A stretch of 64,000 nt of DNA, taken from NCBI GenBank assembly GCA_021805565.1, contig JAJZFA010000013.1, positions 186,001 to 250,000 on the forward strand, read 5' to 3'. Origin of the DNA: Pseudomonadota bacterium (lineage in GTDB: Bacteria; Pseudomonadota; Alphaproteobacteria; Acetobacterales; Acetobacteraceae). A program made the translations under genes and the position numbers. This document shows, in pieces, positions 19,343-54,310 of the stretch (positions are counted from its first letter, which is position 1; each line of letters opens with the position of its first letter). The notes under the pieces were generated by a model, which had not been told where the DNA came from, made no database searches, and worked only from the letters and a program-made list of their open reading frames with translations.

Positions 19343-20098
19343 ATGCTCGATAGGTCCCCATCTCACGCCGGCAAGGTTCCAGCGGTCACGCTTGGGTTCT
19401 GGGTCATCAAGATCGCCGCCACCACGCTGGGCGAAACCGGCGGCGACACGCTGTCCATGTCCATGGGGCTGGGCTATGCCGTCAGCACCGTCATCGTTTT
19501 CGCTATTTTTCTGCTGGCAGCCGGCGCGCAAATCCGCGCGCGTGCCCTCCATCCGTTTCTGTACTGGGCAACGATCGTCGCTGCGACGACCGCCGGTACC
19601 ACGATGGCCGACTTCGCCGACCGCTCGCTGGGTATTGGCTATATTGGCGGATCCGTGTTGCTGTTCGCGCTGTTGATGGCGGTTCTGCTGGCCTGGTGGA
19701 AAACGGCCGGCACCGTATCCGTGACCGCCATCGTCACCCCCAAGGCCGAAGCGTTCTACTGGGCCGCGATTTTTGCCTCCAACACACTCGGTACGGCACT
19801 CGGGGATTTTCTTGCCGACGATTCCGGTCTTGGTTTTGCCGGCGGCGCCCTGGTTTTTGCCAGCCTGCTGGCGATCGTCGCGGCGGGCTACCGCTTCATC
19901 GGTGTCTCCCACACCCTGCTGTTTTGGACGGCTTTCATCCTGACCCGTCCGCTGGGTGCGACGGTGGGCGATCTGCTGACCAAATCGCACGACGATGGCG
20001 GTTTTGGGCTGAGCCGATCCGGTTCCACCGCGATCCTCGCGGTGTTCATCGTTGCCGGTATTCTGTTTGTCCGGCCCCGGGGGCCAAGGGCAGCATAG
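19343..20098 (+). CDS. DUF347-repeat membrane protein (COG4705)
   Basis: The 251-residue polytopic protein contains repeated DUF347 units of the form FW(V/A)IKIAATTLGETGGD, seen near residues 18, 75, 135 and 190, each beginning a membrane helix pair. Such proteins are uncharacterised membrane-anchored proteins. The ATG at 19343 follows GGACGACGCGGC. The stop codon at 20096-20098 lies inside the edge of a structured repeat (20088-20192), so the last codons derive from or adjoin that element. Confidence 0.82.
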   Translation: MLDRSPSHAGKVPAVTLGFWVIKIAATTLGETGGDTLSMSMGLGYAVSTVIVFAIFLLAAGAQIRARALHPFLYWATIVAATTAGTTMADFADRSLGIGYIGGSVLLFALLMAVLLAWWKTAGTVSVTAIVTPKAEAFYWAAIFASNTLGTALGDFLADDSGLGFAGGALVFASLLAIVAAGYRFIGVSHTLLFWTAFILTRPLGATVGDLLTKSHDDGGFGLSRSGSTAILAVFIVAGILFVRPRGPRAA

Positions 20099-20192
20099 GC
20101 ATAGGTGCGTCGGCACGCCGATGAAGCTGCCCGTTCAAACAAAGATTTAGGTCATGCTCGATGCCGCAATCCGAAGCGAGCATGGCCTAAAG
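20088..20192 (-). repeat. Structured repeat family 1, copy a
   Basis: Palindrome TTAGGTCATGCTCG (20147-20160) and CGAGCATGGCCTAA (20177-20190) forms 14 pairs with one G-T. The adjoining tail carries GGGCAGC/GCTGCCC around a GTGC-CGAC-GCAC hairpin. Read on the minus strand it aligns along its length with the copies at 26668, 28097 and 54231, sharing CGGATTGCGG in the loop with the copy at 28097. It follows the 3' end of the DUF347 gene. Confidence 0.8.
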
Positions 20193-20273
20193 GCCGAGCG
20201 GCGGTCGTCAAACCGGCCGGCGCCCCCGTCCGCGCATTGACGCGGCGGGCGGCAGGGTCCACCGCTGATACCC

Positions 20274-22145
20274 ATGTTGCGCCGCTTCGAAGCCCTGCTG
20301 AATCCCACCGCCGGCACGCCGGCCCCCCCACCGGATGCCGGCCTGGTTGGATTTTACTGGTTTTATATCCGGCAGGTGCGAGCCTTGACGGCCGCGCTGT
20401 TCATCTTCGGCGGCCTGATCGCCATTTTGGACACGATGATCCCGGCATTTATCGGCCGTGTCGTCGGCCTCGTGTCATCCAACACACCGGCCACTTTATT
20501 CCGCGATCACGGTGCCGTGCTGCTGGGGATGGCCTTCACGATGCTGATCCTGCGCCCGCTGGTTGCCCTGGGCCATGGCGTGCTGGTGAACCAGATCGTC
20601 AACCCTGGCTTTTCCAACATGATTCGCTGGCAAAACCACTGGCATGTGGTGCGGCAAAGCTGGACGTTTTTCCAGAACGATTTCGCCGGCCGTATCGCCA
20701 ACCGGGTTCTGCAGACCGGCCCGGCGTTGCGAGAAAGTCTGGTCATGGCGTTCGATGCCGCGTGGTACATCCTGGTGTATGGCTCCAGCGCGCTGGTGTT
20801 GCTGGGGCGGCTGGACTGGCGGCTGATGCTGCCGATGCTGCTGTGGTTTGCCTGCTATGCCGGGATGCTGCGCTATTTCGTACCGCGCTTGCGCGACCGG
20901 TCGCGCCGCGTGTCGGAAATGCGCTCCACCCTGACCGGCCGGGTTGTCGATAGCTACACCAATATTTTAACGGTCAAGCTGTTCGCCCGGTCTCGCGACG
21001 AGGACGCGTTCGTGCGCGACGCGATCGACGAGCATACCGGCGTGTTCCGCGATCAGACGCGCCTGACGACGGGATACACCGCCACGCTGATGACGATGAA
21101 CGCGTGGCTGATCGTGTCGATGGCGGCGGTCGCGCTGTGGCAATGGTCCGCCGGTCATATCGCGATCGGCGCCGTTGCCACCGCCATTCCGCTGGCGTGG
21201 CAACTGAATAATATCGCCGGGTGGGTGGCCCGCAGCGTGACCTCGATTTTCGAGAATATCGGCACCGTGCAGGACGGTATGCGGTCCATCGACGTGCCAA
21301 GGCAGCTACCCGATCCGCCGGATGCGGCCGAACTGGTGGTGACAGGCGGCGAGATTCGCGTCGAAAACCTGCATTTCGATTACGGACGCATCCGTGAGGC
21401 CTCAAGCGGGCGTTTTCCCGCCGTCCTGCATGGTATCGACCTGACGATCGCGCCTGGCGAGCGGGTCGGCCTGATCGGCCCGTCCGGCGCCGGCAAATCG
21501 ACATTCGTCAATCTGCTGCTGCATTTTTTCGATCCGGCGTCGGGCCGGATCCTGATCGACGGCCAGGACATCGCCGGCGTCGCCCAGGAAAGCCTGCGCC
21601 GGCACATCGCCATGGTGACCCAGGATACATCGTTGCTGCATCGATCGATCCGGGAAAACATCCGCTACGGACAGCCGCGGGCATCCGACGCACAGATTGC
21701 CGCCGCCGCGAAACAGGCCCACGCGCACGACTTCATCCTCGGCCTGGAAGACTGGCATGGCCGCACCGGCTACGACGCGCATGTGGGGGAGCGCGGGGTG
21801 AAACTGTCCGGCGGTCAACGCCAGCGTGTCGCGCTCGCGCGCGTGATCCTGAAGAACGCACCGATCCTGATCCTGGACGAAGCGACATCGGCCCTGGATT
21901 CCGAGGTCGAGGCCGCAATTCAGGAGCAACTGGACACGCTGATGGAGGGCCGCACCGTGATCGCCATCGCTCACCGGCTATCGACCATTGCCAGGATGGA
22001 CCGGCTGATCGTGCTGGACCAGGGACGCATCGCCGAATCCGGTTCCCACGCTGAATTGCTGCGCCGGGATGGCACCTATGCGCGGCTGTGGCGTCGGCAA
22101 TCGGGGGCCTTCGGCAGTGCGGGCGAAGGTGCGATTGCCGTCTGA
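20274..22145 (+). CDS. ABC exporter, fused permease-ATPase half-transporter
   Basis: The 623-residue protein has an N-terminal type IV exporter membrane domain (about six helices, residues 30-330) and a nucleotide-binding domain. The latter shows Walker A GPSGAGKST, signature LSGGQRQR and Walker B ILILDEATSALD. It works as a dimer. It resembles MsbA-like and YheI/YheH-like multidrug or lipid exporters; substrate cannot be told. The stop codon overlaps the start of repeat family 2 copy 1. Confidence 0.9.
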   Translation: MLRRFEALLNPTAGTPAPPPDAGLVGFYWFYIRQVRALTAALFIFGGLIAILDTMIPAFIGRVVGLVSSNTPATLFRDHGAVLLGMAFTMLILRPLVALGHGVLVNQIVNPGFSNMIRWQNHWHVVRQSWTFFQNDFAGRIANRVLQTGPALRESLVMAFDAAWYILVYGSSALVLLGRLDWRLMLPMLLWFACYAGMLRYFVPRLRDRSRRVSEMRSTLTGRVVDSYTNILTVKLFARSRDEDAFVRDAIDEHTGVFRDQTRLTTGYTATLMTMNAWLIVSMAAVALWQWSAGHIAIGAVATAIPLAWQLNNIAGWVARSVTSIFENIGTVQDGMRSIDVPRQLPDPPDAAELVVTGGEIRVENLHFDYGRIREASSGRFPAVLHGIDLTIAPGERVGLIGPSGAGKSTFVNLLLHFFDPASGRILIDGQDIAGVAQESLRRHIAMVTQDTSLLHRSIRENIRYGQPRASDAQIAAAAKQAHAHDFILGLEDWHGRTGYDAHVGERGVKLSGGQRQRVALARVILKNAPILILDEATSALDSEVEAAIQEQLDTLMEGRTVIAIAHRLSTIARMDRLIVLDQGRIAESGSHAELLRRDGTYARLWRRQSGAFGSAGEGAIAV

Positions 22146-22260
22146 TACCAACCGGCGGAAAGGATGACTCTCCATCCTTTCCGCCGGTTGGTATCGCGCG
22201 CCGCGTTGGACGGCGGCGGCGCGCCAAAAAAAGACCGATACCACCCGCCCGCATGTTGAA
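22144..22260 (+). repeat. Palindromic repeat family 2, copy 1
   Basis: A perfect 23-bp stem (22144-22166 with 22173-22195, loop ACTCTC) begins inside the TGA of the ABC exporter gene. A second perfect 9-bp stem GCGCGCCGC/GCGGCGCGC and a run of seven A follow. The whole stretch aligns with 51921-52030, including TATCGCGCGCCG and TTGGACGG. Confidence 0.8.
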
Positions 22261-22353
22261 GGATCGGTCATAATCCGGTTCTCCACAGGCCCCGGCAACC
22301 GTGCCATGATCCTGGTGTTACCGGTCGAGTCCATCGTCACCCGGGAGGCACCC

Positions 22354-22707
22354 ATGGCACGCGCGAAACCCAGCCCATCCAACCCCAACCCCCTGGCGGA
22401 CGACCCGGCGCGCGAGCAGCGCATCCGCGAGCGCGCCTATCATCTGTGGGAGACAGACGGCCGGCCGCATGGCCGGGACATCGAATACTGGGAGCGCGCA
22501 CGCGAACTGACCGGTATGGCGGAAAGCGTCGGCAGCGGCCTGCTGCCCAATCCGCAAACCGCGCCCGGCCGGATCGATCAGGCGGATATCACCGAGGCCG
22601 ATATTCAGGAAAACCTCGGCGAATTTCCCGGTCGCCTGACCGATCGGGGCGACATACAGGCCACGCCAAAGCGCCGCGCCCGCGCCAAACCGAAAAAACC
22701 GGCGTGA
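22354..22707 (+). CDS. DUF2934 family protein
   Basis: The 117-residue cytoplasmic protein has the DUF2934 core at about residues 19-48: IRERAYHLWETDGRPHGRD, ending EYWERARE. A charged, low-complexity tail follows with a Lys/Arg/Pro-rich C-terminus. The ATG at 22354 has CGGGAGG upstream. Function is unknown; such genes often lie near stress or envelope genes in alphaproteobacteria. Confidence 0.85.
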   Translation: MARAKPSPSNPNPLADDPAREQRIRERAYHLWETDGRPHGRDIEYWERARELTGMAESVGSGLLPNPQTAPGRIDQADITEADIQENLGEFPGRLTDRGDIQATPKRRARAKPKKPA

Positions 22708-22827
22708 TGCCATCACGCTCTGGTGACATGGCCGGATATTAATCCGGTCTGCCCATTTCGTGCCACACAGACACCCCATCCTGCCCTGACACAAACGCAG
22801 ACATTCGGTCTCCGCAAGGACAGGCAG

Positions 22828-24606
22828 ATGCGATTCTTTAAGGTTTATGGGCGCGTTCTCGGACTGCTGGGGCGGGATATCCGGGTCGCCGGATGTGTTG
22901 CCGTCGCCAGTATGGTGGCCGCCGGTCTCCAGTTTCTCGACCCGGTACTGTTCGGCCGGGTCGTCACCCTGCTGTCGCGGTCTGACACGCTGCCGCACGG
23001 CGCCCTTTGGCACGACGCAACCGTGTTGCTGGGAATCTGGGTCACGGTCGGCATCGGCGGTATTGTTAGCAATATCGCGGTCGCTTTGCTCGCCGAACGT
23101 CTCGCGCATCGTCACCGGATTAAATCGATGGGCCGGTATTTCCAGCATGTGCTGGCCCTGCCGCTGTCTTTTCACGGATCGACGCACTCGGGCCGCATCA
23201 TCAAAGGGATGCTGACCGGAACCGATGGCTTGTTCGGCACCTGGCTGCTGTTTTTCCGCGATCAGCTTTCTACCATTTTATCCGCGTTTGTTCTGCTCCC
23301 GATGACACTTTTTCTGAACTGGCGGCTCGGTTTGGTGCTGATCGTGCTCGTTTCGCTTTTTCTGGTCTTTACCGCTATCGTGGTGCGGAAAACGGAAACC
23401 GCGCAGCGCCGGATCGAGGGGCTGAATTCCAACCTGGCCGGCACCGCGCAGGACGCGATCAGCAACGTCATGGTGGTGCAATCCTTCAATCGCCTGTCGG
23501 CCGAGGGCCGCCTGTTCGGCGACATCGCCAACCAGGTCATTCGCAATCAATTCCCGGTGCTGAACTGGTGGGCGCTGGTGAACGTCATGACGCGGGCATC
23601 CAGCACGCTGGCGATTATCGCGATCGTCGTCGTCGGCACCTGGTTGCATATGAACGGCCTTGCCAGCGTCGGCGAAATCGTCAGCTTCATGGGGTTCGCG
23701 ATGCTGCTGATCGGCCGCCTGGAAACCGCCGCGTCGTTCGTTTCGTCGCTGTTCTTCAAGCTGCCCGCGCTGGAGGACTTCTTCGCGGTTCTGGACGAAC
23801 GCAGTTCGGTGCCGGAAAAAGACAATGCCCGCACGCTATGGGCGCCGCGCGGCGAAGTGCGCTTCGAAAACGTCGGCTTCGCCTATCCCGCCAACGACGC
23901 GCGGGTCCTGACAGATGTCAGTTTCACGGCGAAACCCGGCACGTGCGTTGCCCTGGTGGGTCATACCGGCGCCGGCAAATCCACCGCGATGACCCTGCTC
24001 CAACGCCTGTGGGATCCGACGTCCGGCCAGATCGCAATCGATGGGCAGGACCTTCGCGATATCTCGCTGGACAGCCTGCGCGACAATATCGGCGTGGTGT
24101 TCCAGGAAAGCCTGCTGTTCAACCGATCGATCCGCGACAATGTGTTGGTTGGCCGGCCCGGCGCCACCGACGAGGAAATCGAACGGGCCTGCCGCATGGC
24201 CGACGCACATGAATTCATCGTTCGCCAGCAGAACGGGTACGACACCATGATCGGCGAACGCGGCACCACCCTGTCCGGCGGACAGAAGCAGCGTCTCGCT
24301 ATCGCCCGGGCCTTGTTGAAAAACCCGCCGATCCTGATCCTCGACGAAGCCACCAGCGCGCTGGACGCCGCGACCGAGGCGCGTGTCGGCAAGGCGCTGA
24401 AAACACTGATGGCGGGCCGCACGACCTTTATCATCGCGCACCGCCTGTCCACGGTGCGCGATGCCGACGAAATTCTGGTGTTCGATGACGGGCGAATTGT
24501 CGAGCAGGGTAGCTTCGACGCCTTGCTGGCCCGTCAGGGGCATTTCGCACAGCTTGTCGAAACCCAGCTTTCGCCCGCCGTGCCACACCTGATGGCGGCG
24601 GAGTGA
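22828..24606 (+). CDS. ndvA: NdvA/ChvA-like glucan ABC exporter
   Basis: The 592-residue fused permease-ATPase is close in length to NdvA/ChvA (about 588), which exports cyclic beta-1,2-glucan to the periplasm. It begins MRFFKVYGRVL with about six membrane helices to residue 300. The ATPase has GHTGAGKST, LSGGQKQR and ILILDEATSALD. AAGGA lies 10 bp before the ATG at 22828. No cyclic glucan synthase (ndvB) is in the window, so the substrate is inferred from overall resemblance only. Confidence 0.78.
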   Translation: MRFFKVYGRVLGLLGRDIRVAGCVAVASMVAAGLQFLDPVLFGRVVTLLSRSDTLPHGALWHDATVLLGIWVTVGIGGIVSNIAVALLAERLAHRHRIKSMGRYFQHVLALPLSFHGSTHSGRIIKGMLTGTDGLFGTWLLFFRDQLSTILSAFVLLPMTLFLNWRLGLVLIVLVSLFLVFTAIVVRKTETAQRRIEGLNSNLAGTAQDAISNVMVVQSFNRLSAEGRLFGDIANQVIRNQFPVLNWWALVNVMTRASSTLAIIAIVVVGTWLHMNGLASVGEIVSFMGFAMLLIGRLETAASFVSSLFFKLPALEDFFAVLDERSSVPEKDNARTLWAPRGEVRFENVGFAYPANDARVLTDVSFTAKPGTCVALVGHTGAGKSTAMTLLQRLWDPTSGQIAIDGQDLRDISLDSLRDNIGVVFQESLLFNRSIRDNVLVGRPGATDEEIERACRMADAHEFIVRQQNGYDTMIGERGTTLSGGQKQRLAIARALLKNPPILILDEATSALDAATEARVGKALKTLMAGRTTFIIAHRLSTVRDADEILVFDDGRIVEQGSFDALLARQGHFAQLVETQLSPAVPHLMAAE

Positions 24607-24699
24607 TCGCCGGTCAATCGAGTGTGACTGTCAGCTGCGACGATACGATGTTTAATTCGGCGGCATTATCGTATTGGTCGCGGAAAAGGGAAAAACATC

Positions 24700-24873
24700 A
24701 TGCTTCGGTTGGCCTTGTTCTTTCTTGTTGTTTCAATCGTGGCGGCGATATTCGGCTTTGGCGGAGTCGCCGCCGCTTCGGCCAGCATCGCCCGGATCCT
24801 GTTTTTCATCGCGATCGTGGTGTTCGTGGTGCTGTTGATTGCCGGCCTGATGACGGGCAGCACGCTGATGTAA
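24700..24873 (+). CDS. DUF1328 small membrane protein
   Basis: This 57-residue protein (ATG 24700, TAA 24871-24873) has two membrane helices with the DUF1328/YtjA pattern. It has a [19 protein letters not shown] start, an Ala-rich turn, then [30 protein letters not shown] precedes the start. Members are often stress-induced small membrane proteins of unknown function. Confidence 0.88.
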
Positions 24874-25029
24874 TAGTGTTTGCTGCACCGCACAGCTAAA
24901 AGTTGCATTTGATTCTCTGGAAAGCGCATGCTGTGTTTCTGTAAGGATGCGGGTGCGCGATCAGGCGTAAAGTTTTCGTGAATACACGTGACTTGGGCGC
25001 CCCCGGCCGAACAAGCAAAGGGCAGGACA

Positions 25030-25467
25030 ATGTCAACAGTTGCCGCGATCCTCAAGCATAAGGGCTATCAGGTTTCCACCGTCGATCCCACCGCTCGCGT
25101 GGCCGATGTCGTATCGTTGCTGGCGGATCGCCGTATCGGCGCTGTCCTGGTGATGGACCGGGCGGAACAAATGCTCGGTATCGTCAGCGAACGGGACATC
25201 GTCCGGGCGCTGGCGGCTAACGGAGCCGCTACGCTGGACATGACAGCCGGCCAGTTGATGACGCGGGCCGTGCAGGTGGCGCACCCAGGAACAACCACGG
25301 ATCAGGCGATGCAGATGATGACCGCCGGCCGGTTCCGGCACCTTCCGGTTACCGATCGGGATACGCTGATCGGGCTGATCAGCATCGGCGATGTGGTCAA
25401 GGCCCGCATTACGCAACAGGATGCGGCAGTGGAAAGCCTGACCGCCTATGTTGCCGGATCGGCCTGA
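25030..25467 (+). CDS. CBS-domain pair protein
   Basis: The 145-residue protein consists of two CBS domains (about residues 8-68 and 75-135), with IGAVLVMD and GIVSERDIVRAL in the first and FRHLPVTD and GLISIGDVVKARI in the second. Stand-alone CBS pairs bind adenosine nucleotides and regulate partners. The ATG at 25030 follows AAAGGGCAGG. It appears monocistronic. Confidence 0.9.
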   Translation: MSTVAAILKHKGYQVSTVDPTARVADVVSLLADRRIGAVLVMDRAEQMLGIVSERDIVRALAANGAATLDMTAGQLMTRAVQVAHPGTTTDQAMQMMTAGRFRHLPVTDRDTLIGLISIGDVVKARITQQDAAVESLTAYVAGSA

Positions 25468-25526
25468 TGTAAATCGAAATAACACCGAATACTCCCGGAC
25501 TGCCGATCATGGCTTCGGCGGCCCGG

Positions 25527-26828
25527 TTACGGCATCGCCCGCCAGTCCCAGACCGGTGCGGCCGTATAGACCAGCGTCACCGCCTCCCCGGGCCGCACCG
25601 CGATGGTGCCTTGAGTCAGCGAATAGACCGACGCGCCGGCCGACATGCCAGACACCGCGCCGCCAGACACCACGACAAGAACCGATCGGCCAGTGCTGTT
25701 GACAAGGGCGGTACCGCTTGGCGGGACGGGCGGCGTGGCAACCTCCGCACCGAACTGCTGTAGCCACAGGCCGGCCGAACCGGCGACCGGAACGCCGCCG
25801 GGGTAGGGCGATATGTTCGGGTTGGTGACGACGTTGGCCGACCCGGCCTTAAAGTCCAGACCGGTCATCGCCACGAACTGGCCGCCAATGAAAGTGTTGC
25901 GTTCCGCACGCGGACTATCGATCGAAATGCCGGTATTGACGACCTCGGCATCCACTGCCTCGAAGACGTTTCCGAATACGTAGCCGCCAGTCAAATGAAC
26001 GCCCGTCCCGGCATTGGAAAAGCTGCCCATGAAGCGACTGAACGCCGCATAGCGCACTTGCAGCGAAACCCCCTTGCCGTTGCCGGTTGTGGATCCGCCG
26101 CCGGTGTTCGCGACCACACCCTGAAAGTCGCAGTTGAAGCACCCGTTGATCCGCAAGGCGACCGTTGCGGTATCGTTTGCGACATTCTTGAACTCGATCC
26201 GGGCGAAGGTGAAACCGTTGATGGCATCGGTCAGATCGGATTTGCCGAGTTGCACGCCTGCTCCGGCCGTATCGGTCAGGACAGTGAAGTCCGAAAAATC
26301 GCCATAGAACAGCGCTCGGTTTCCGGTGATCAGCAACGGCGTTCCGGCTCGTACCGCACGCAGGTCAAGCACCGATTGCCCCTGCCCAGCCCCCGCGATG
26401 CGAACACCGTCCGGCCGCTGGGACATATCCCAGACGAGGGGGGATCGCACGATGCAGGTGCCCGGCGGCAAGGCTCCGGCACCACCCAGGCGCATCAGGG
26501 TGGACCACCAGGCCTGTATCGCCGCGGTATCGTCGGTCTTGCCGTTGCATTTCGCACCTGCATCGATCGGGCTGTAGCCGAGCGCTGGGCCGGGCGGCAC
26601 GGACATGCGCTGTTGCCGCGTTCCGGCCGGTTGCGCGTTGGCCAGACATGGCGCCATCGCGATGGCACTTAGGAATTGCCCGACAATAATCGCTACAAGC
26701 GGCAGCGTCGGGCAATCCCTAAGCTCATGCTTTGCACGGCAACTTCGCCGGCGTGCTGACGCACTTATTTGCCAGCGTTGCCTCACCAAGCCGCGACGGA
26801 TGGCACCCGTCGGCCGGGCTGACCGCAT
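25527..26828 (-). CDS. Right-handed beta-helix (pectate-lyase-like) exported protein
   Basis: The protein carries the pectate-lyase-3 start PIDAGAKCNGKTDDTAAIQ, followed by repeated beta-helix coils and short Asn/Gly-rich turns, with a small C-terminal beta domain. A signal-like stretch (VAIIVGQFLSAIAMAPCLANA) precedes the domain. The ATG at 26828 lies 6 bp after the flippase stop, and the frame then runs through structured repeat family 1 copy b, which encodes RQRWQISASAR and KHELR. A later ATG at 26657 would give a shorter start without a full signal peptide. It may modify or bind the exopolysaccharide. The start is uncertain. Confidence 0.65.
   Translation of the reverse strand: MRSARPTGAIRRGLVRQRWQISASARRRSCRAKHELRDCPTLPLVAIIVGQFLSAIAMAPCLANAQPAGTRQQRMSVPPGPALGYSPIDAGAKCNGKTDDTAAIQAWWSTLMRLGGAGALPPGTCIVRSPLVWDMSQRPDGVRIAGAGQGQSVLDLRAVRAGTPLLITGNRALFYGDFSDFTVLTDTAGAGVQLGKSDLTDAINGFTFARIEFKNVANDTATVALRINGCFNCDFQGVVANTGGGSTTGNGKGVSLQVRYAAFSRFMGSFSNAGTGVHLTGGYVFGNVFEAVDAEVVNTGISIDSPRAERNTFIGGQFVAMTGLDFKAGSANVVTNPNISPYPGGVPVAGSAGLWLQQFGAEVATPPVPPSGTALVNSTGRSVLVVVSGGAVSGMSAGASVYSLTQGTIAVRPGEAVTLVYTAAPVWDWRAMP
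26668..26785 (+). repeat. Structured repeat family 1, copy b
   Basis: Arms CTTAGGAATTGCCCGAC (26668-26684) and GTCGGGCAATCCCTAAG (26707-26723) pair over 17 positions with one mismatch. The tail holds GGCAAC/GTTGCC, GCCGGC/GCCAGC and GTGC-TGAC-GCAC. It is the same length through the palindrome as the copy at 28097 (59 bp) with paired changes. It lies 3' of the flippase gene and inside the open frame of the beta-helix gene. Confidence 0.85.
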
Positions 26829-26833
26829 CGTTG

Positions 26834-28084
26834 TCACAGTACCGCCGCCCGGACGCCGAATCCGCCGGTCAAAGGCCGGATCATGCCGACGCCCAGTGCC
26901 CTGGCGTTCGCCCACAGGCTGTACGGGCTGACCAGAATCTGGCTGATCGTCCAGATCATCGCCGCGTGCCAGGGATCCGCGGGCCGGAACAACAGCACCC
27001 CGGCGGCACTGACGGCCAGCCCGGCGAGATTGGCATACAGTGTGAACCGCACCTGGCCAGCGGCGACCAGCGCCACGCCGGATGGAAACGATAGCACCGA
27101 CCAGGCCATCAAGCCGACCAGGGGCACCGCCGCCTGGCCGGTTTCCGCCCAGACCGGCCCCATCGACACCGCGACGACCCGTGTCAGCCCGAGACCCAGC
27201 ACCGCGCACAACGGAAAAACCGCCGCGACGCAGCGGCGCAGCCAGCGGTCCACCTGCTCCAGCGTGGCCGCGCGGTCGTGCTGACAGTCCGAAAAAACCG
27301 GCAGCATCAGCCGCCACAGCGCGGTGAAAATCAGCTCCCGCACGGTATCCACCAGCCGGAACGCGATATGGACCTGCGCCAGCGCGGCGGGCCCGGCGGT
27401 TCCGCCGATCAATACCGCGAACAGCCGGTAACGGCCGATCAGCACCAGGGTGGAGGCGGTCAGCGGCGCGCCCACCGTCAGCAGTGCCCGCACGGACCCC
27501 CAGTCCAGGCGGCCGGACGGTAGCCAACTCCGGCCAACCAGCAGGGCGAGCGCTCCGATACCGGTGGTGACGGCCTGCTGATATACCACCGCCCAGGCAC
27601 CCGCGCCGTACAACGCCGAGACGACGCCAACGGCGGTGCCCAGTCCCTGGCCGATCAGCGTGCGCAGGGCCAGGTTACGATAGGCTCGTTCTCGCGTCAG
27701 CAGTCCCTGAATAACGCCCGCCGCACCGGCCAGCGGCAGCGGCGCGGCCAGTACCAGGCCCATCGCCAAAAGGCGGGGATCCCGGAATAGGATCGACAGC
27801 CCCCAGCCGGCGGCGCCCTGGATCAGCATGGCGACGCAGCCAACGCCGGTGGAGGCCCAGAACGCACTGGACATAATGCGGTCGTCGATCGATGGCCGCT
27901 GCACCACCGCATCGGCGAACAGCCCGTTCACCACGACCCACAACAGCACATGCACCGCCGTCGCCGCCGCGCCGATGCCAAACGCGGCGGGGCCGGCGAT
28001 GCGGGCCACCACGAAAGACGTCACGACCGACAGGATCGCGGACATGGCGGCCTCCAGCCCCGACCAGAACGCATCGCGCTTCAT
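26834..28084 (-). CDS. Polysaccharide flippase (MOP superfamily, Wzx-like)
   Basis: The 416-residue protein has about 12 membrane segments and the GLEAAMSAILSVVTSFVVARIAGPAAFGIGA start typical of Wzx/PST flippases, which move lipid-linked sugars across the inner membrane. The ATG at 28084 overlaps the stop of the upstream gene by four bases (ATGA). Upstream in-frame codons fall in repeat copy c and are not used. With galE, BY-kinase and export lipoprotein it forms an exopolysaccharide locus. Confidence 0.82.
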   Translation of the reverse strand: MKRDAFWSGLEAAMSAILSVVTSFVVARIAGPAAFGIGAAATAVHVLLWVVVNGLFADAVVQRPSIDDRIMSSAFWASTGVGCVAMLIQGAAGWGLSILFRDPRLLAMGLVLAAPLPLAGAAGVIQGLLTRERAYRNLALRTLIGQGLGTAVGVVSALYGAGAWAVVYQQAVTTGIGALALLVGRSWLPSGRLDWGSVRALLTVGAPLTASTLVLIGRYRLFAVLIGGTAGPAALAQVHIAFRLVDTVRELIFTALWRLMLPVFSDCQHDRAATLEQVDRWLRRCVAAVFPLCAVLGLGLTRVVAVSMGPVWAETGQAAVPLVGLMAWSVLSFPSGVALVAAGQVRFTLYANLAGLAVSAAGVLLFRPADPWHAAMIWTISQILVSPYSLWANARALGVGMIRPLTGGFGVRAAVL

Positions 28085-29562
28085 GCGCGCCGCCGCCTTA
28101 GGCCATGCCCAACAACCATCGTTTCGGATTGCGGTGTCGGGCATGCCCTAAGCTCATGTTTTGCAGGGCAACTTTGCTGGCGTGCTGACGCACTTGTTTG
28201 CCAGCGTTGCCTTAGCGCGGCGAGGGACAGGACGGCACTAAAGGGCGGCAGCCACATGATGCGGGCCTGGTACCGGTCGTGCGGCGCCGATAGCCCGCCG
28301 GTAATAGCGGCGCTCAGCGGCAGGGCGATCAGCACGGCCAGCAGAAGGACGGCGCAGGCGCTTCGGCGGCGGATCGCGGCGGGCAGCAGAAGGACGCAGC
28401 CGGCGACGCCGCTGACCGCGACGATGCGATGGATCCAGGCCAGCAGGGGCGGCACCGACAACGATCCGGCCTGTTGCCGCGCGGCGGTATAGGCGGCCAG
28501 TTCCCGAGCGGGAAAGTCCCTGGCGATGACGGGCGATACCTGATCCGGCCATGCGGTCAGGCCATCGCCGCTTTGGAAGCGCACCAATTGCCGCAGCGTG
28601 TTGTCCAGTGCCGCTCGGGCCTCGCCGACCGGATCGGCGCGCAAGGCGCTCCGGATGATCGCATCGGCGTCCCTGGAGACGATTTTCGGGCCGCCCGCAC
28701 GGTTCAGCGGACTGTCCGGAGTCCACAGAAAGTCGTCCGACGTGGGCGGAAAAGTGGAGAGGAACGGGCATAGCCGCCAGTGGATTGAGGGGCAGTCGCG
28801 GCGGAGGGCGGTCATGCCAGGCCCGTCGTAGATGACCCGCGCGAGCATGAAAATATTGCCAAAGGGGGAGACACCGAAGCGCCCATGCGCCGCGAGGTTG
28901 ACCACGCACAGACCGGTCACGGCCAACACGGGCGGGGCGATAAGCAGCAGCCAGCGGCGGTTTGGGCTGGGGTTGGCCCTGCCGGCATCGCAACAGGCGC
29001 CTGGGGGGGAAGCGGTATCCAGCGTGCAAGCCGGTGCCGAACGCATGAATCCCAGCACCATCGCCAGCCCGCAGGCCAGCGGCAGACTGGACAACTGCGT
29101 TGCGATCATGAACGCGGCAAGAACGGCCAGCAGCATCGGCTGCCGGGGCGGTCCCAGCGCCAGAAGGCACATCAGCAGCACCATCAGCGGCGTGAACAGG
29201 TCCGGCATCGCTTCGCTGACCAAAAACGGCAGCCATGTGCCAGCCGCAAGCAGGCCGGCCCCACCGATGAACAGCGGCGCCGTAACACCCGGCACGAACG
29301 TCCGGCAAACGAGCCATAACACCCAGGCGGTGAGCAGCGCCTGGGCGATCGCGACCGGCCATAGCGTTACCGTCGCATGCAGCGGAAACATGAACATCGA
29401 ATAGAAGACCGGCCGGTCCCACCCGGCATATCGATGGATCGCCTGCGACAAATACGTACCGGTATCGGCGAACACGATCGGATACCCGTTCCACAGCGCC
29501 GGCCACAGCAACAACGCCGCGGCGGCCGGGACAACGAACCAGGTGCGCCGGTCAGCCGCCAT
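28081..29562 (-). CDS. Polytopic membrane protein of the EPS locus, with repeat-encoded C-terminus
   Basis: The 493-residue protein has about 9-10 membrane segments after an N-terminal signal-anchor (FVVPAAAALLLWPALWNG) and a periplasmic DTGTYLSQAIH segment. Layout resembles GT-C-type glycosyltransferases or polymerases, but no family motif is certain. The last 40 or so residues (RQRWQTSASAR and KHELRACP) are encoded by repeat family 1 copy c. The frame closes in an ATGA overlap with the flippase. It overlaps galE by 11 bp. Confidence 0.6.
   Translation of the reverse strand: MAADRRTWFVVPAAAALLLWPALWNGYPIVFADTGTYLSQAIHRYAGWDRPVFYSMFMFPLHATVTLWPVAIAQALLTAWVLWLVCRTFVPGVTAPLFIGGAGLLAAGTWLPFLVSEAMPDLFTPLMVLLMCLLALGPPRQPMLLAVLAAFMIATQLSSLPLACGLAMVLGFMRSAPACTLDTASPPGACCDAGRANPSPNRRWLLLIAPPVLAVTGLCVVNLAAHGRFGVSPFGNIFMLARVIYDGPGMTALRRDCPSIHWRLCPFLSTFPPTSDDFLWTPDSPLNRAGGPKIVSRDADAIIRSALRADPVGEARAALDNTLRQLVRFQSGDGLTAWPDQVSPVIARDFPARELAAYTAARQQAGSLSVPPLLAWIHRIVAVSGVAGCVLLLPAAIRRRSACAVLLLAVLIALPLSAAITGGLSAPHDRYQARIMWLPPFSAVLSLAALRQRWQTSASARQQSCPAKHELRACPTPQSETMVVGHGLRRRRA
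28097..28214 (+). repeat. Structured repeat family 1, copy c
   Basis: Arms CTTAGGCCATGCCC and GGGCATGCCCTAAG flank a loop with CGGATTGCGG. The tail has GGCAAC/GTTGCC and a perfect GCTGGC/GCCAGC around GTGC-TGAC-GCAC. Relative to copy b, two arm base pairs differ on both sides (A-T to C-G and T-A to A-T). It lies within the 3' end of the membrane protein gene and ends 12 bp before the flippase start. Confidence 0.85.
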
Positions 29563-30538: not shown

Positions 30539-30544
30539 CGTCCG

Positions 30545-41803: not shown

Positions 41804-41812
41804 GACCGTTCC

Positions 41813-43558: not shown

Positions 43559-43561
43559 CGC

Positions 43562-44022: not shown

Positions 44023-44039
44023 TTCATCGGAGACTTGTC

Positions 44040-46971: not shown

Positions 46972-47058
46972 GACGCGGACGTTTATCAGCGAACGCGCGC
47001 TTTCGCCATGCGGGTATCCGCGGAAACGGCGGGATGACCGCTCGTCGCAAGCACTGCC

Positions 47059-49115: not shown

Positions 49116-49184
49116 GCTACCTACCATCATCGGATGTCGCGCGGCATTGTTCAATCCATAGATTGCAGCCGGCAATGCGGCGAT

Positions 49185-50030: not shown

Positions 50031-50084
50031 TGTCGTTCCTGGCAGACAGCCGCGCGTGCGGACGATTGCGAACGCGCCACCGGG

Positions 50085-50945
50085 TCAGTCGCCGAGACGC
50101 GCCGCGAACGCTTCGACGACGCTGTCGCCGGTCATGTCGGCGACTTTGGGCTTTACGACCATCCGCGCGAAATCGGACGTTATATAGCGGAAATGCGGCG
50201 TTTCGGCCTGGGCGGCGGCCAGAATGATCCGGGCGATGTCGTCGCCGGTTTGCCCATACTGGGCGAAGACCCCGGCGGAAGCACCGATATAGGCATTGAA
50301 CATGCGGTCGTAGGGAGGCAGGAGGACGGCGGCGGTTCCTGCGCTGGCCGCACGGACATTGGCGACGAATTCGGTGTTGACCGGGCCAGGTTCGATCAGG
50401 CTGACGTGGAGTCCCATCCGGCGGGCGAGGGGTGCGAAGCCTTCCATCATGCCCTCGACCGCGAATTTCGCGGCGCAGTATGCCTCGTTGAACGGCTGGC
50501 CGATCAGCCCGCCGATGCTGGTAACGCTGATGATCCTGCCGGATCCGCGCTGGCGCATGTGCGGTACGACGGCCTTGGCGGTGTTCCAGACCCCGAAGAA
50601 ATTGACCTGCATGATTCGCCGCAGGTCGTCGTCGCCGGTCTGTTCGATGCTGCCGATGAACCCCGCGCCGGCGTTGTTCACCAGGACATCGATGCCGCCG
50701 AATTCGGCGATCGCGCCGTCAACGGTATCCTGGATCGAAGCCTGCCGGACGACATCGAGCGGCCGAACGATGACTTGCACGGACGCGGCCTTGGCCAAAT
50801 CCAGCAATTCGGCGGCCTTGCCCGTGTCGCGCATCGTCGCGATGGTGCGGTAACCGGCGCCGGCAAAACGCAGCGCGGTACAAAGGCCGACGCCGGTGGA
50901 TGTGCCGGTTATCAGCACGGTGGGCTGGGATGGCGTGGACGGCAT
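50085..50945 (-). CDS. SDR family oxidoreductase
   Basis: The 286-residue classical SDR has TGTSTGVG near residue 12, NNAGAG near 90 and the catalytic Ser/Tyr/Lys as SVTS and YCAAK near 140-160. AGGGATTG precedes the ATG at 50945. It is NAD(P)-dependent; substrate unknown. A frame extension upstream has no homology. Confidence 0.9.
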   Translation of the reverse strand: MPSTPSQPTVLITGTSTGVGLCTALRFAGAGYRTIATMRDTGKAAELLDLAKAASVQVIVRPLDVVRQASIQDTVDGAIAEFGGIDVLVNNAGAGFIGSIEQTGDDDLRRIMQVNFFGVWNTAKAVVPHMRQRGSGRIISVTSIGGLIGQPFNEAYCAAKFAVEGMMEGFAPLARRMGLHVSLIEPGPVNTEFVANVRAASAGTAAVLLPPYDRMFNAYIGASAGVFAQYGQTGDDIARIILAAAQAETPHFRYITSDFARMVVKPKVADMTGDSVVEAFAARLGD

Positions 50946-51158
50946 GACAATCCCTGACGGTGCCAATTCGATGTGGGACGGGATTTCTGAAAATGAAGGC
51001 CGCGCGCCGCCGGAATTGCCGTCGTTGCGGCGGGCCACGCCCAGCATCGGTCAGCCGCACGATCCGGGCAAGCGGCGCCGGCCTATTAAAGGACTTGCGA
51101 ACGCGAGCCTTGCATAGCTATTTAAGGCTCAAGAATTGACTGTCCGTCGGAGGCGAAC

Positions 51159-51401
51159 GTGAGACAATTGGCCGTAAGGTTGGGATTGCTGATGGCGGTT
51201 GGCGCGCTGGGCGGCTGCATGGGCGGATTCGAGCCTGGCGGTTATGGAATGGGCGGCTACGGCGGCGAAGGCTTTGGTGGCGGTGGCTATGGCTATGGCG
51301 GCGACGATGAAATGGGCGGCTTCGGCGGACCAGGCATGTTCGCCCCATCGTTTGGCGGGTTTGGATTTGGCGGCGACGGCGGCGGTGACGACGACGATTG
51401 A
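51159..51401 (+). CDS. Gly/Tyr-rich small lipoprotein with poly-Asp tail
   Basis: The 80-residue precursor has a lipoprotein-type signal (LLMAVGALGGC). It is then almost all Gly with Tyr/Phe in GGYG and GGFGG units, ending in GGGDDDD. A GTG start follows GTCGGAGG. The family is not recognised. Tail and context suggest an outer envelope component or metal-binding peptide. A Spy-like gene follows 80 bp downstream. Confidence 0.65.
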   Translation: MRQLAVRLGLLMAVGALGGCMGGFEPGGYGMGGYGGEGFGGGGYGYGGDDEMGGFGGPGMFAPSFGGFGFGGDGGGDDDD

Positions 51402-51481
51402 GTCCGATCGGCTGAAACAACCTTGAAGGCGTCGGGCCGGGCGTATGGCCCGATGTTCGCGATGGTGAGGAGAACGAAAGC

Positions 51482-51922
51482 GTGACGATGAAATCGATGA
51501 CCTCCATGGCCTTGATGGCGGCTCTGCTGACAATGCCGGTTGTTGCCGGCGCGCAAACGCCGCCGGCGGGTGCTTCGCTCTCCGCCCCGGACGTGTCGGC
51601 GCGTATGGAACACCGGCTGGCCCGGATGCATGCCGAAATTGGCATAACCCCAGCCCAGGAATCGTTATGGGCGCACTATGCCGGCGTTGTCGGCACCAAC
51701 GCCCAGGATATGGGGGCGATGATGGTGCGCCGCCGAACCGATCTCGCGACCATGACCGCTCCTCAAAATATCCAATCCCTCACCGACATCGCCGCTCGGC
51801 ATGCTGCGAATATGCAACAACTTAATGGCGCATTTTCAGCGTTGTATGGCGCTTTGTCGCCTGATCAGAAGATGAAAGCCGACGCGGCGCTCCGCCAGCA
51901 CGGAAAACACGCGAATCCGTGA
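51482..51922 (+). CDS. Spy/CpxP (LTxxQ) family periplasmic protein
   Basis: The 146-residue protein has a signal peptide (ALMAALLTMPVVAGAQ) and helical repeats with the LTxxQ-like pattern (GITPAQESLW, then LSPDQKMKAD). Spy/CpxP members are periplasmic chaperones or metal-responsive proteins. Start is GTG at 51482 or ATG at 51488. The stop codon begins a copy of repeat family 2. Confidence 0.8.
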   Translation: MTMKSMTSMALMAALLTMPVVAGAQTPPAGASLSAPDVSARMEHRLARMHAEIGITPAQESLWAHYAGVVGTNAQDMGAMMVRRRTDLATMTAPQNIQSLTDIAARHAANMQQLNGAFSALYGALSPDQKMKADAALRQHGKHANP

Positions 51923-52030
51923 TGCCAGGTGGCGGAACGGATGACCGAGCCATCCATTCGGCCGAATTGTATCGCGCGCCGGCTTGGACGGTAACGCTAA
52001 AAATAACCCCTACCGGCCCGCGTTGACCTG
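51921..52030 (+). repeat. Palindromic repeat family 2, copy 2 (degenerate)
   Basis: The stretch begins GATGCCA inside the TGA of the Spy-like gene and keeps GGATGAC...CCATCC, TTGTATCGCGCGCCG, TTGGACGG, an A-rich run and TACCGGCCCGC. It aligns with 22144-22260. The palindrome is no longer perfect. Confidence 0.65.
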
Positions 52031-52086
52031 TTCTACCTGGGTCAATCCGGTCTGGTATGGCACGACCCTGTTCCCGCGAAGGCCGG

Positions 52087-52401
52087 TCACTCCTGGGGGT
52101 CGGGATTCTGAATGACCCGCACGAATCCCGGATCGGCCACAAGGCGCCAGTAATACCCGGTGCAGACCAGCGGGGACGGAAGCGACGGATGCAACCCCCG
52201 AGCAGTGTCGGCGGCGATAAAATCCCCGGTCGGTGGAATAAGCGAAACGCCCGTCGGTGACACCGTCATCGGGTCGGAGCCGGTTTCGATGCGCAACGCC
52301 GCCGAGGCCAACGCACCGCAAGCATCGCCGCTGACCTCCGCCGCCAGCGGATAAAGCCAGATTATCGCAAGGATGAGCAGTGCGGAAAGTGCGAATTTCA
52401 T
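52087..52401 (-). CDS. Small secreted or membrane-anchored protein, unknown
   Basis: From the ATG at 52401 the frame encodes 104 residues with an N-terminal hydrophobic segment (KFALSALLILAIIWLYPLA) that may be a signal peptide. Two cysteines follow (GDACGAL, LVCTGYY). The family is not recognised. It is divergent from the MarR gene, which starts 110 bp away. Confidence 0.5.
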   Translation of the reverse strand: MKFALSALLILAIIWLYPLAAEVSGDACGALASAALRIETGSDPMTVSPTGVSLIPPTGDFIAADTARGLHPSLPSPLVCTGYYWRLVADPGFVRVIQNPDPQE

Positions 52402-52511
52402 TCGCACAAGGGTAGTCCCGCCAACGCCGGGCGCAATGCCAGCCGGCCGCGGCGGCCGGTGCATGAAGGTCGTTTGCAGACGAACGACCGAGCGGATATG
52501 AACGCTGTGCG

Positions 52512-52997
52512 ATGAGATATGCAAACCGGTCGGAGTTGCCGCCTTCTCAGCCTGCCGGAACCGAGCGATCCGGTGGCGTATTCGGCGGCTATGTCGTCGA
52601 GGATCAGGTGGGCTTCCTGCTGCGGCGCGCCCACCAGCGGCACACCGCCATCTTCGCCGGCGGCATGACCGGCGCCGATTTGACGCCGACGCAGTTTACC
52701 GCGCTGATCAAAATCGTGGAACTTAAGCGTGTCACGCAGAATCAACTCGGCCGCCTCTCCGCCATGGACCCGGCCACCATCCAAGGGGTGGTGCGTCGCC
52801 TTATGGATCGCTCGCTGGTGACCCGGACGGCCGATCCGTCCGACCGACGGACGATCGTGCTGGCCCCGGCGCCCGCTGGCGTGGCGCTCGCCGCGCAAGC
52901 CGTCATCGAGGCAAGGCAGATCACGCAGGCGACACTCGATCCGCTGACTGGGGACGAACAGCAGCACCTGCTGGCCCTGCTGCGCAAACTTGGCTGA
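52512..52997 (+). CDS. MarR family transcriptional regulator
   Basis: The 161-residue protein has the MarR winged helix: LTPTQFTALIKI, then GRLSAMDPATIQGVVRRLMD recognition helix, and the wing RTADPSDRRTIVLAPA. It precedes the enamidase gene by about 25 bp on the same strand and faces the nicotinate-type operon. It is the likely ligand-responsive repressor of this pathway; that role is inferred from position. Confidence 0.88.
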   Translation: MRYANRSELPPSQPAGTERSGGVFGGYVVEDQVGFLLRRAHQRHTAIFAGGMTGADLTPTQFTALIKIVELKRVTQNQLGRLSAMDPATIQGVVRRLMDRSLVTRTADPSDRRTIVLAPAPAGVALAAQAVIEARQITQATLDPLTGDEQQHLLALLRKLG

Positions 52998-53022
52998 CCG
53001 GCACAAAAAAAGGAACGATGGC

Positions 53023-54219
53023 ATGGCATTGACCGCGGGTCCGGAACGGCAAACCGGCAAACTGGTGATCGGCAATATCGGCCTGCTGCTGTCCGGCGCG
53101 CTGGAAGCACCCATCCTGGATGCGGATACGATCGTCGTGGAAGACGGCCGCATCGCCGCCGTTGGAAAGCGGGCGGATTGCGACATCGGCGACGCCCGCG
53201 TCACCATCGATGCGCATGGCTGCGCCGTGTCGCCCGGCCTGATCGACAGCCACGTTCATCCGGTGTTCGGCGATTGGACGCCGCGGCAGGGACAGTTCGG
53301 CTGGATCGATTCGTTCCTGCATGGCGGCGTAACGACGATGGTTTCGGCCGGCGAAGTGCATCTGCCCGGCCGGCCGCGCGACATCGTCGGGGTCAAGGCG
53401 CTGGCGATTACCGCTCAGCGGGCGTACGAGAATTTCCGGCCCGGCGGCGTGAAAGTGCTGGGCGGCGCGCCGGTGATCGAAAAGGGCATGGTGGAGAGCG
53501 ATTTCGTGGAACTGGCGCAAGCCGGTGTGCGGCTGCTGGGCGAGGTCGGGCTGGGCAGCGTGAAAGCCGGGTATGAGGCCAAGGAGATGGTCGCCTGGGC
53601 CCGCAAGGCCGGCATTCAAAGCACCATTCATACCGGCGGCCCATCGGTGCCGGGATCGGGCTATATCGATGCCGACACGGTGCTGGAGGCCGATGCCGAC
53701 ATCATCGGCCACATCAACGGCGGCCATACGGCCCTGCCGCTGTCGCAAATCCGCTGCCTGTGCGAAGGCTGTTCGCGCGGCATCGAAATCGTGCATAATG
53801 GCAACGAACTGGCCGGGCTGATGGCGCTGCGATATGCGCGCGAACTGGGGCAGATGGAACGGGTGATCCTGGGGACCGACAGTCCGGCCGGATCGGGCGT
53901 GCAGCCGCTGGGGATCCTGCGGATGATCGCGCTGCTGTCATCGGTGGGGGACATGCCGGCCGAAACCTTGTTCTGCTGCGCCACCGGCAATACCGCCCGG
54001 ATGCGGAGCCTGGATTGCGGCCTGATCGAACCCGGCCGGGCGGCCGATCTGGTGTTTTTGGACCGGGCGCAGCATTCGGCGGGGACCGATTTGCTCGACA
54101 GCGTGCGCAAGGGCGATCTGCCGGGGATTGGCATGGTGGTGATCGACGGGATCGTCCGCTGCGGCCGCAGCCGGAATACGCCCCCGGCCGAACGGGTGCC
54201 GGAAGTAGTGGGCGGATAG
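53023..54219 (+). CDS. Amidohydrolase, enamidase-like (nicotinate pathway)
   Basis: The 398-residue metal-dependent hydrolase has the DSHVHP zinc motif, an LLGEVGLGS segment with the likely bridging Glu, and downstream TIHTGGPSVPG and HINGGHTAL histidines, ending in GTDSPAGSG. It resembles the enamidase of Eubacterium barkeri, which opens 1,4,5,6-tetrahydro-6-oxonicotinate to 2-formylglutarate. The neighbouring 6-hydroxynicotinate reductase would make that substrate. The ATG at 53023 has AAAGGA upstream. Confidence 0.8.
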   Translation: MALTAGPERQTGKLVIGNIGLLLSGALEAPILDADTIVVEDGRIAAVGKRADCDIGDARVTIDAHGCAVSPGLIDSHVHPVFGDWTPRQGQFGWIDSFLHGGVTTMVSAGEVHLPGRPRDIVGVKALAITAQRAYENFRPGGVKVLGGAPVIEKGMVESDFVELAQAGVRLLGEVGLGSVKAGYEAKEMVAWARKAGIQSTIHTGGPSVPGSGYIDADTVLEADADIIGHINGGHTALPLSQIRCLCEGCSRGIEIVHNGNELAGLMALRYARELGQMERVILGTDSPAGSGVQPLGILRMIALLSSVGDMPAETLFCCATGNTARMRSLDCGLIEPGRAADLVFLDRAQHSAGTDLLDSVRKGDLPGIGMVVIDGIVRCGRSRNTPPAERVPEVVGG

Positions 54220-54230
54220 CGCCGCCCCGG

Positions 54231-54310
54231 CTCAGGCCATGCCCTAAGCTCGTGTTTTGCTCGGCAACTGTGCTGGCGTGCTGACGCACTTATTTGCCAG
54301 CGTCGCCTAA
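54231..54310 (+). repeat. Structured repeat family 1, copy d (loop-deleted)
   Basis: CTCAGGCCATGCCCTAAGCT looks like the left and right palindrome arms of copy c fused through their shared CATGCCC, with the loop lost. The tail (GGCAACTGTGCTGGC, GTGCTGACGCAC, GCCAGC) is intact. It lies between convergent genes and ends at the livF stop. Confidence 0.8.

What the first reader, a model, noticed from the sequence alone, without database searches (positions are those of the whole stretch)
20088..54310. Family of four structured repeats, each at the 3' end of a gene in the same relative orientation
Copies at 20088-20192 (minus), 26668-26785, 28097-28214 and 54231-54310 (plus) align over most of their length. 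Each has a long palindrome ending in CCTAA(G) and a tail of nested stems GGCAAC/GTTGCC and GCTGGC/GCCAGC around GTGC-TGAC-GCAC. Pairs change on both sides between copies: ATTGCCC/GGGCAAT versus CATGCCC/GGGCATG, and GGCAAC/GTTGCC versus GGCAGC/GCTGCC. This supports selection on structure. In all four cases the element begins at or just after the stop of a gene transcribed into its tail end. This could be a REP/MITE-like mobile element, a 3'-end processing or stability element, or both. I do not know it as a described family.
Basis: partly seen in the sequence, partly recalled or inferred. Interest (0 to 1): 0.8.

Follow-up and report, generated by a model that had tools for sequence, protein, structure and literature searches.

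The report
Mobile hairpin repeat targeting stop codons
The four repeats belong to a small non-coding mobile element, present in about 150 copies in this bacterium, that inserts at or near the ends of genes, very often exactly at the stop codon, which it duplicates so that the gene still ends properly.

Summary
The repeat is a ~111-bp unit of two hairpins joined by a T-rich linker. The source genome has at least 151 matches to a model of hairpin B; the 150 listed form 127 sites. It is a mobile element: 31 of 32 near-identical copies in another MAG have the same 3 bp on both sides. One insertion lies exactly at the stop of pstB; in the 11 congener loci read, pstB ends at the same TGA without the element. 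Of 127 sites, 53 lie exactly on the stop codon of a called gene, against 100 of 876 non-coding TWA control sites. Stems differ between lineages but stay paired (two of five measures do not exceed shuffles). Within lineages, stem changes are mostly one-sided (159 against 12 compensated), so inserted copies show little sign of being kept as RNA. Layout and some model hits place it with the two-armed alphaproteobacterial repeats (CIR/RIME type). A review dated December 2007 lists the CIR duplication as '?'. The enzyme that moves it was not found. Best reading: a recently active variant of that kind, with a measured duplication and a stop-codon preference.

The parts
20085..20190 (-). Copy c1 (subfamily 2): left TSD TTA 20188-20190, element 20088-20187 with shortened A hairpin, right triplet 20085-20087 reads TTG (mutated TSD, inferred); DUF347 gene 19343-20098(+) ends inside the element tail
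26669..26785 (+). Copy c2: left triplet TTA 26669-26671, element 26672-26782, right triplet TCA 26783-26785; 48 bp beyond the stop of minus gene 26834-28144 (Polysacc_synt_3)
28098..28214 (+). Copy c3: left TSD TTA 28098-28100, element 28101-28211, right TSD TTA 28212-28214; inserted in frame in the last codons of minus ORF 28081-29562
54232..54310 (+). Copy c4: left TCA 54232-54234, collapsed A hairpin 54235-54244, TAA 54245-54247, linker and B hairpin to 54307, right TAA 54308-54310; stop TAG of minus ABC-transporter gene 54307-55008 is at 54307-54309
26672..26719 (+). Module A (left hairpin, 48 nt) of c2, the model case
26720..26782 (+). Linker plus module B (63 nt; right hairpin with GTGC-TGAC-GCAC apex) of c2

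Best explanation
A non-autonomous mobile DNA element of about 111 bp: hairpin A, a T-rich linker, hairpin B. An enzyme supplied in trans (not identified; a DDE-type transposase is the simplest reading of the constant 3-bp duplication) inserts it into C-TNA-G/C sites and duplicates the TNA. Relative to the available TWA sites, stop codons are used about 5-11 times, and the 15 bp after them about 2.5-6 times, more often than other non-coding sites. TNA covers TAA and TGA read on either strand. Because the element starts with G and ends with C, a TAG overlapping the site is rebuilt too. So a gene running into either end can keep its stop. Shown: copy number, 3-bp duplication, one empty site, recent burst, stop enrichment, stems that change in paired fashion between lineages. 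Inferred: the trans enzyme, that palindromic ends are needed for mobility, and that the stop preference is at least partly targeting and not only survival.
For: At least 151 model matches in the genome (150 candidates scored, 150 listed); 127 sites, 19 of them tandem arrays. Equal 3-bp flanks in 31 of the 32 G020 copies with both ends in the contig (36 copies examined), including one ATA/ATA; in 48 of 56 own sites with TNA at both ends (the border search there favoured TNA). G020 copies are 99.5% identical in B (33 copies). Empty site: pstB ends ..TGRFG-TGA in own and in the 11 congener loci read, of 19 congeners searched; flanks are contiguous without the 114 bp in G006, G008 and G697; the PstB model matches to its last position. 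Stops: own 53 of 127, G021 24 of 46, G020 8 of 36, or 7 of the 17 with gene calls on both sides. Controls: in 400 kb of own genome 100 stop and 776 other non-coding TWA sites, Fisher p = 4e-15; in the insertion loci themselves, outside elements, TWA 54:1101 and CTNAG 11:88. Motif-matched: CTWA without G 10:4 against 30:133, p = 6e-5; CTWAG 9:15 against 0:21, p = 0.002. Sites used per control TWA site: 0.53 at the stop, 0.27 at 1-15 bp, 0.05-0.11 beyond. Compensated cells 121 against 42.9 shuffled.
Against: No gene for the moving enzyme was tied to it: 33 of 34 left ends in G020 pair with a B module and the last is at a contig edge, so no autonomous copy shows; the two IS5-type elements whose ends were found do not carry both element ends. 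Terminal repeats are weak (10-13 of 23). Own-genome borders were found with a rule that favours TNA; 8 of 56 TNA pairs differ. Genes were called by a simple codon-usage script trained on the window, with thresholds 15 (own, G021), 10 (G020) and 12 (distant genera). At 36 of 127 sites a called gene runs open across one or both borders (22 left only, 9 right only, 5 both); where hairpin A was not recognised the left border was a guess. One insertion only was checked against empty sites; the window's c4 gave no orthologous site. In the pstB case the right triplet reads TAA against TGA on the left. In one search two of five covariation measures (pairs with double changes 11 against 10.0; pair types 26 against 30.2) do not exceed the shuffles. 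In an Asticcacaulis plasmid 1 of 7 related hits lies exactly at an annotated stop.
Confidence: 0.85

Rival explanations
1. The element inserts at any C-TNA-G/C site and natural selection removes copies except at harmless 3' ends; there is no true stop-codon targeting.
For: Flanking genes are convergent at 46 sites and divergent at 12; only 5 of 127 sites have a gene open across both borders.
Against: Sites 16-50 and 51-150 bp past a stop, which should be about as harmless, are used no more often than sites with no gene pointing in (0.08 and 0.10 against 0.107). The youngest set (G020, 99.5% identical) already has 7 of 17 at stops.
Confidence: 0.3
2. A structured 3'-end RNA (terminator, stability or processing element) kept by selection at each site.
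For: Two strong hairpins, paired changes between lineages, position at 3' ends; the B apex stem is nearly invariant.
Against: Within-lineage stem changes are 159 one-sided, 12 compensated, 6 double uncompensated, in 81 own-1, 45 own-2 and 45 G021 copies counted; G-T against A-C 20 to 30 in own, 9 to 10 in G021, not significant; both orientations occur at gene ends; no match in 9 of 11 congeners of the first search.
Confidence: 0.1
3. A REP element moved by a REP-associated tyrosine transposase (Y1 HUH).
For: Palindromic, intergenic, high copy, modular arrays; one Y1_Tnp gene in the source genome.
Against: No Y1_Tnp match in G020 or G021 (draft MAGs), which carry 37 and 69 copies; a 3-bp target duplication is not made by HUH enzymes (established knowledge).
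Confidence: 0.03
4. Specifically an IS5-family MITE (IS1031/IS427-like, TNA or TA duplication).
For: IS5-type (PF13340) genes occur in all three genomes; one own copy, L189, has ends GGGCCTGTC.. next to TA, close to the A4 consensus left end GGGCCTGTTC. That IS1031 duplicates TNA is recalled.
Against: Right ends do not match; the two IS5 copies whose ends were found (L188, L189) look bordered by TA, not TNA; PF13340 matches number 3, 2 and 3 per genome.
Confidence: 0.3

Closest known systems
CIR elements of Caulobacter/Brucella (Chen & Shapiro 2003; seen only through passages of PMC2229807, original not held)
   Same: About 110 bp, two long inverted repeats joined by a linker, TA at the termini, intergenic, GANTC in a hairpin apex (GANTC present in G021 20 of 23 copies with hairpin A, distant genera 12 of 21)
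   Different: GANTC in 11 of 150 own copies; here a 3-bp TNA duplication, stop-codon preference and a recent burst are shown, whereas the review lists CIR duplication as '?'
RIME1 of Rhizobium (Osteras 1995, not held; sequence and layout recalled)
   Same: Two palindromes about 108 bp; read in reverse complement the same order hairpin - (C)TCTTTGTTT linker - hairpin. Model R2 matches an Asticcacaulis and a Bradyrhizobium repeat end to end
   Different: R2 does not match the two Rhizobium repeats fetched (L289 E 0.34, L288 none). Stem sequences differ; stop preference not established there
MIRU of Mycobacterium (recalled)
   Same: Short repeat reported to insert at overlapping stop/start codons
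   Different: Unrelated sequence, direct repeat without two hairpins; not tested here
Correia/NEMIS, RUP, ERIC (passages of PMC2229807)
   Same: Small non-autonomous elements with TA at the ends and target duplications
   Different: Those have end-to-end terminal repeats; here each end is its own hairpin and the ends match in only 10-13 of 23

Membership tests
CIR/RIME two-armed alphaproteobacterial repeat | About 100-117 bp with two hairpin arms and a linker | tested here: met
CIR/RIME two-armed alphaproteobacterial repeat | Detectable homology to such repeats outside Acetobacteraceae | tested here: inconclusive
   Of four plasmid loci, R2 matches two: Asticcacaulis full length (E 1.3e-6 in 12 kb; 2.5e-5 in 250 kb) and Bradyrhizobium (E 4e-4); not the two Rhizobium loci. 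That any of these is the published CIR or RIME is recalled, not read
CIR/RIME two-armed alphaproteobacterial repeat | GANTC at a hairpin apex | tested here: inconclusive
   GANTC anywhere in the element: G021 20 of 23, distant genera 12 of 21, own 11 of 150
CIR/RIME two-armed alphaproteobacterial repeat | Intergenic location | tested here: met
   91 of 127 sites have no called gene open across a border, 31 across one, 5 across both; left borders partly guessed. c3 is an in-frame exception
DDE-transposon-derived MITE | Fixed-length target site duplication | tested here: met
DDE-transposon-derived MITE | Terminal inverted repeats | tested here: inconclusive
   10-13 of 23, shuffle p 0.0002-0.047
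DDE-transposon-derived MITE | Autonomous element sharing the ends | tested here: inconclusive
   none seen in G020 or at the two IS5 elements whose ends were found; MAG assemblies may drop multi-copy IS
REP / RAYT | Y1 transposase present with the repeat | tested here: not met
   no match in G020 and G021; one gene in the source genome
Rfam RNA families | Match at gathering score | tested here: not met
   only two tRNAs in the window; a sub-threshold BASRCI27 match (26.8 against 59.8 bits) overlaps a distant copy, L285

The most novel reading that the evidence does not exclude
The CIR/RIME superfamily is a transposition system that actively recognises gene termination sites: insertion is directed to the stop codon or the few bases after it, and the duplicated TNA with the element's terminal G and C rebuilds TAA, TGA or TAG for genes on both sides, a built-in safe-site strategy used across Acetobacteraceae and perhaps Alphaproteobacteria (13 of 21 distant-genus copies also abut a stop, no control run; in Asticcacaulis 1 of 7).
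Probability: 0.4. Interest if true: 0.8.

Novelty: new variant of a known kind. Interest (0 to 1): 0.6.

Why it matters
For the CIR-type repeats a review stated that more information is needed on how they move (PMC2229807, passages read). Here a duplication, an exact empty site and a target are measured, which makes the search for the enzyme a defined problem. A mobile element that prefers stop codons and restores them would show how a genome can carry about 130 insertions near gene ends with little damage, and would explain why such repeats look like 3'-UTR elements.

Tried and rejected
REP/RAYT: disfavoured. Intrinsic terminator: in window 19500-28500 16 terminator-like sites were found (7.2 in shuffles), one of them inside a copy (c2's A hairpin, minus strand). 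RNA under selection: tested by strand asymmetry and compensation, not supported. IS5 source: seven IS5-type loci scanned for inverted ends, found for two, and the right side does not match. Phage carriage: 0 exact matches of a 19-letter pattern in viral contigs. Class-wide search: 2 of 385 genomes, namely the source genome and one marginal match (E 8e-4), with strict filters and 9 candidates scored each, so distant members are under-counted. The family search found 42 of 299 genomes, 26 of 102 genera, the source included (12 candidates scored each). Empty site for window copy c4: the query met mostly partial transporter-gene matches and other copies of the repeat. A second rhizobial query found 8 places in 7 records. 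Literature: searches; in the titles and abstract starts shown I saw no bacterial MITE with a stop-codon preference. The original CIR and RIME papers are not held, so they may report gene-end positions.

Full report
Observation. The four copies align as stated. The full form is hairpin A (arms such as GGAATTGCCC/GGGCAATCCC), a linker CTAAGCTCATGTTTTG, and hairpin B (GGCAAC-GCTGGC-GTGC-TGAC-GCAC-GCCAGC-GTTGCC); c1 belongs to a second subfamily and c4 has a collapsed A. The core 15-mer at up to 1 mismatch occurs 139 times in the source genome, and once for the reversed control. A covariance model of B from 33 copies (R1) gives 151 matches at E up to 0.001, a lower bound because 150 candidates were scored. 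I used the 150 listed. They form 127 sites: 108 single, 16 double, 2 triple, 1 quadruple. Tandem spacings read from the positions are mostly 62-63 bp (B) and 114 bp (A+B).

Distribution. Of 11 same-genus genomes in the first relatives search, two had matches (3 and 1); none of 8 from other families had any. Two named MAGs carry many copies: Acetobacteraceae bacterium 338R_metabat_61 (G020, 37) and Rhodospirillales bacterium REEB358 (G021, 69). A family-wide search with a two-hairpin model (R2) hit 42 of 299 genomes in 26 of 102 genera, the source included; two congeners there have 12 and 10 matches among the 12 candidates scored, and four others listed have none. By matching contig coordinates, G590 there is G020 (so G020 is a congener) and G573 is G021; this is inference. 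Class-wide, 2 of 385 genomes were hit with strict filters: the source genome and one marginal.

It is mobile. In G020 the copies are 99.5% identical in B (33 copies). Of 36 copies examined, 32 have both ends in the contig and 31 of these are flanked by identical triplets: TTA, TAA or, once, ATA. In the source genome both ends were recognised at 73 of 127 sites and 48 are equal; where both are TNA, 48 of 56 are equal. The right border was searched with a pattern that favours TNA, so the G020 figure is the cleaner one. In G021, 46 copies from 40 fetched stretches were used (two weak or cut hits dropped); 24 have TNA at both ends and 17 are equal overall. The target from the 48 equal own sites is C (39 of 48), T, T/A/G (31/15/2), A, then G (29) or C (12), with nothing clear beyond.

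Empty site. The copy at G000:C27:34287 lies exactly after ..GGC CGG TTC GGC TGA, the end of a protein that the PstB model matches to its last position (248 of 248); 18 bases beyond the inserted 114 bp a PhoU gene starts. Of 19 congeners searched, the 11 whose loci were returned and read (L297-L307) end the gene at the same TGA and lack the element; in G006, G008 and G697 the two flanks are contiguous. Four of the 11 (L301, L302, L306, L307) read CTGAG there, the expected target. The right-hand triplet in the source genome is TAA, so one copy of the duplication has probably mutated.

Stop codons. With genes called by codon usage, 33 sites have a minus-strand gene stopping exactly at the right border and 20 a plus-strand gene stopping at the left border: 53 of 127. 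Some have ends I recognise as native, such as ..TGSEVHIDGGQRV (SDR-like) and ..EKRKPVFTGR (enoyl-CoA-hydratase-like); these names are recalled. In 400 kb of the same genome, 100 of 2979 TWA sites are at stops and 776 in other non-coding DNA. Those stretches hold none of the listed copies. In the insertion loci themselves, outside elements, the figures are 54 and 1101. Against non-coding sites of the 400 kb the enrichment is 53:74 to 100:776 (p = 4e-15; the 74 include 5 genic). With the target motif matched it is 10:4 to 30:133 (CTWA without G, p = 6e-5) and 9:15 to 0:21 (CTWAG, p = 0.002); the matched sets come from those of the 48 equal sites that have C before the triplet, less one genic, and include two TGA sites. 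Sites used per control TWA site are 0.53 at the stop, 0.27 at 1-15 bp, 0.08 at 16-50, 0.10 at 51-150, 0.05 beyond, and 0.107 where no gene points in (a relative index, since the control covers 400 kb only). G021 has 24 of 46 at stops. G020 has 8 of 36, or 7 of 17 with genes called on both sides (counted by hand). At 36 of 127 own sites a called gene runs open across one or both borders, partly because left borders without a recognised hairpin A were guessed. Because young copies already show the preference and positions further downstream do not, I lean to targeting, but survival bias is not excluded.

Why it is mild. The left end begins with G and the right end ends with C in the typical copy. 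TNA duplicated on both sides therefore leaves TAA or TGA in place, and rebuilds TAG where the site overlaps one, for a gene entering from either side. This follows from the sequence. In window copy c3 the 114-bp insertion is in frame inside the end of a gene, and the ORF runs through it.

Structure. Across 40 copies from three genomes 93.6% of cells pair; 121 cells show compensated double changes against 42.9 in shuffles (0 of 500 reach it), and sliding the partner gives at most 23. Two measures do not exceed the shuffles: pairs with a double change (11 against 10.0) and pair types (26 against 30.2). So the covariation rests on a few lineage-level changes inherited by many copies. Inside a lineage, one-sided changes are 74, 57 and 28, compensated 3, 8 and 1, double uncompensated 2, 4 and 0 (own subfamily 1: 81 copies; own subfamily 2: 45 of 49 counted; G021: 45). 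Twenty of the 150 own hits had other lengths and were left out. G-T and A-C departures are 20 and 30 in own, 9 and 10 in G021. So the palindromes appear to be kept in the copies that move, not in those that sit. The A interior is inverted in L015, L201 and L202.

Relatives. Twenty stretches from eight genomes in seven further genera gave 22 hits; 21 were used and one weak overlapping hit dropped. They read C/TTAGAGC..GCTCTA-linker-..GCTCTA or close variants; 13 of 21 abut a stop codon (counted by hand), without a control. In G020 the element also lies beside or inside a second two-hairpin repeat of that look. Of four plasmid loci fetched with a recalled rhizobial repeat, R2 matches an Asticcacaulis and a Bradyrhizobium repeat end to end (E 1.3e-6 and 4e-4 in 12 kb) but not the two Rhizobium ones. 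In 250 kb of the Asticcacaulis plasmid R2 finds 7 places at E up to 1, four of them below 0.001; one lies exactly at an annotated stop. The CIR description (about 110 bp, two arms and a linker, TA ends, duplication '?', mobility unexplained) was read in passages of PMC2229807. RIME was seen only as mentions in PMC2573895 (passages). Br-REP1 and Br-REP2 of Bradyrhizobium lie in 3'-UTRs (PMC5082802, passages and one section read).

What moves it. Y1 transposase gave no match in two of the three genomes. IS5-type genes are in all three; the two whose ends were found do not carry both element ends. In G020, 33 of 34 left ends pair with a B module and the last is at a contig edge. The two ends of the element resemble each other in 10-13 of 23 bases. 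The enzyme remains unknown.

Noticed in passing
window 28081-29562 (-) and 28101-28211: Copy c3 is translated in frame: 114 bp is 38 codons, so the upstream gene's ORF passes through the element and ends at a TGA overlapping the next gene's ATG.
   Followed up: yes
L031, L042, L063, L069, L071, L036 (G020): A second two-hairpin repeat, about CTAGAGCGTGATC...GATCATGGTCTAG, into or beside which the first family has inserted.
   Followed up: partly
L196 (G000:C58:172880), about 13 kb left of the window: A Y1_Tnp (RAYT-like) gene in the source genome; its own repeats were not sought.
   Followed up: no
L005 and L010 (G000 contigs C2 and C4 ends): The same kind of sequence (TTTGAGAAAATCACATTCCCGC) follows the element's right TAA at two contig ends, as if an unassembled repeated element lies there.
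   Followed up: no
L188 (G021:C242): An IS5-type element with perfect 16-bp ends sits directly at the end of a called gene, so stop-adjacent insertion may not be limited to the hairpin repeat.
   Followed up: no
L285:2957-3117: A distant copy overlaps a sub-threshold Rfam match to BASRCI27 (Brucella sRNA), hinting that some annotated sRNAs are such repeats.
   Followed up: no
L201, L202, L015: The interior of hairpin A is inverted relative to hairpin B.
   Followed up: partly
L285:5070-5260: A tandem glycine riboswitch (two aptamers) in the fetched stretch of genome G532.
   Followed up: no
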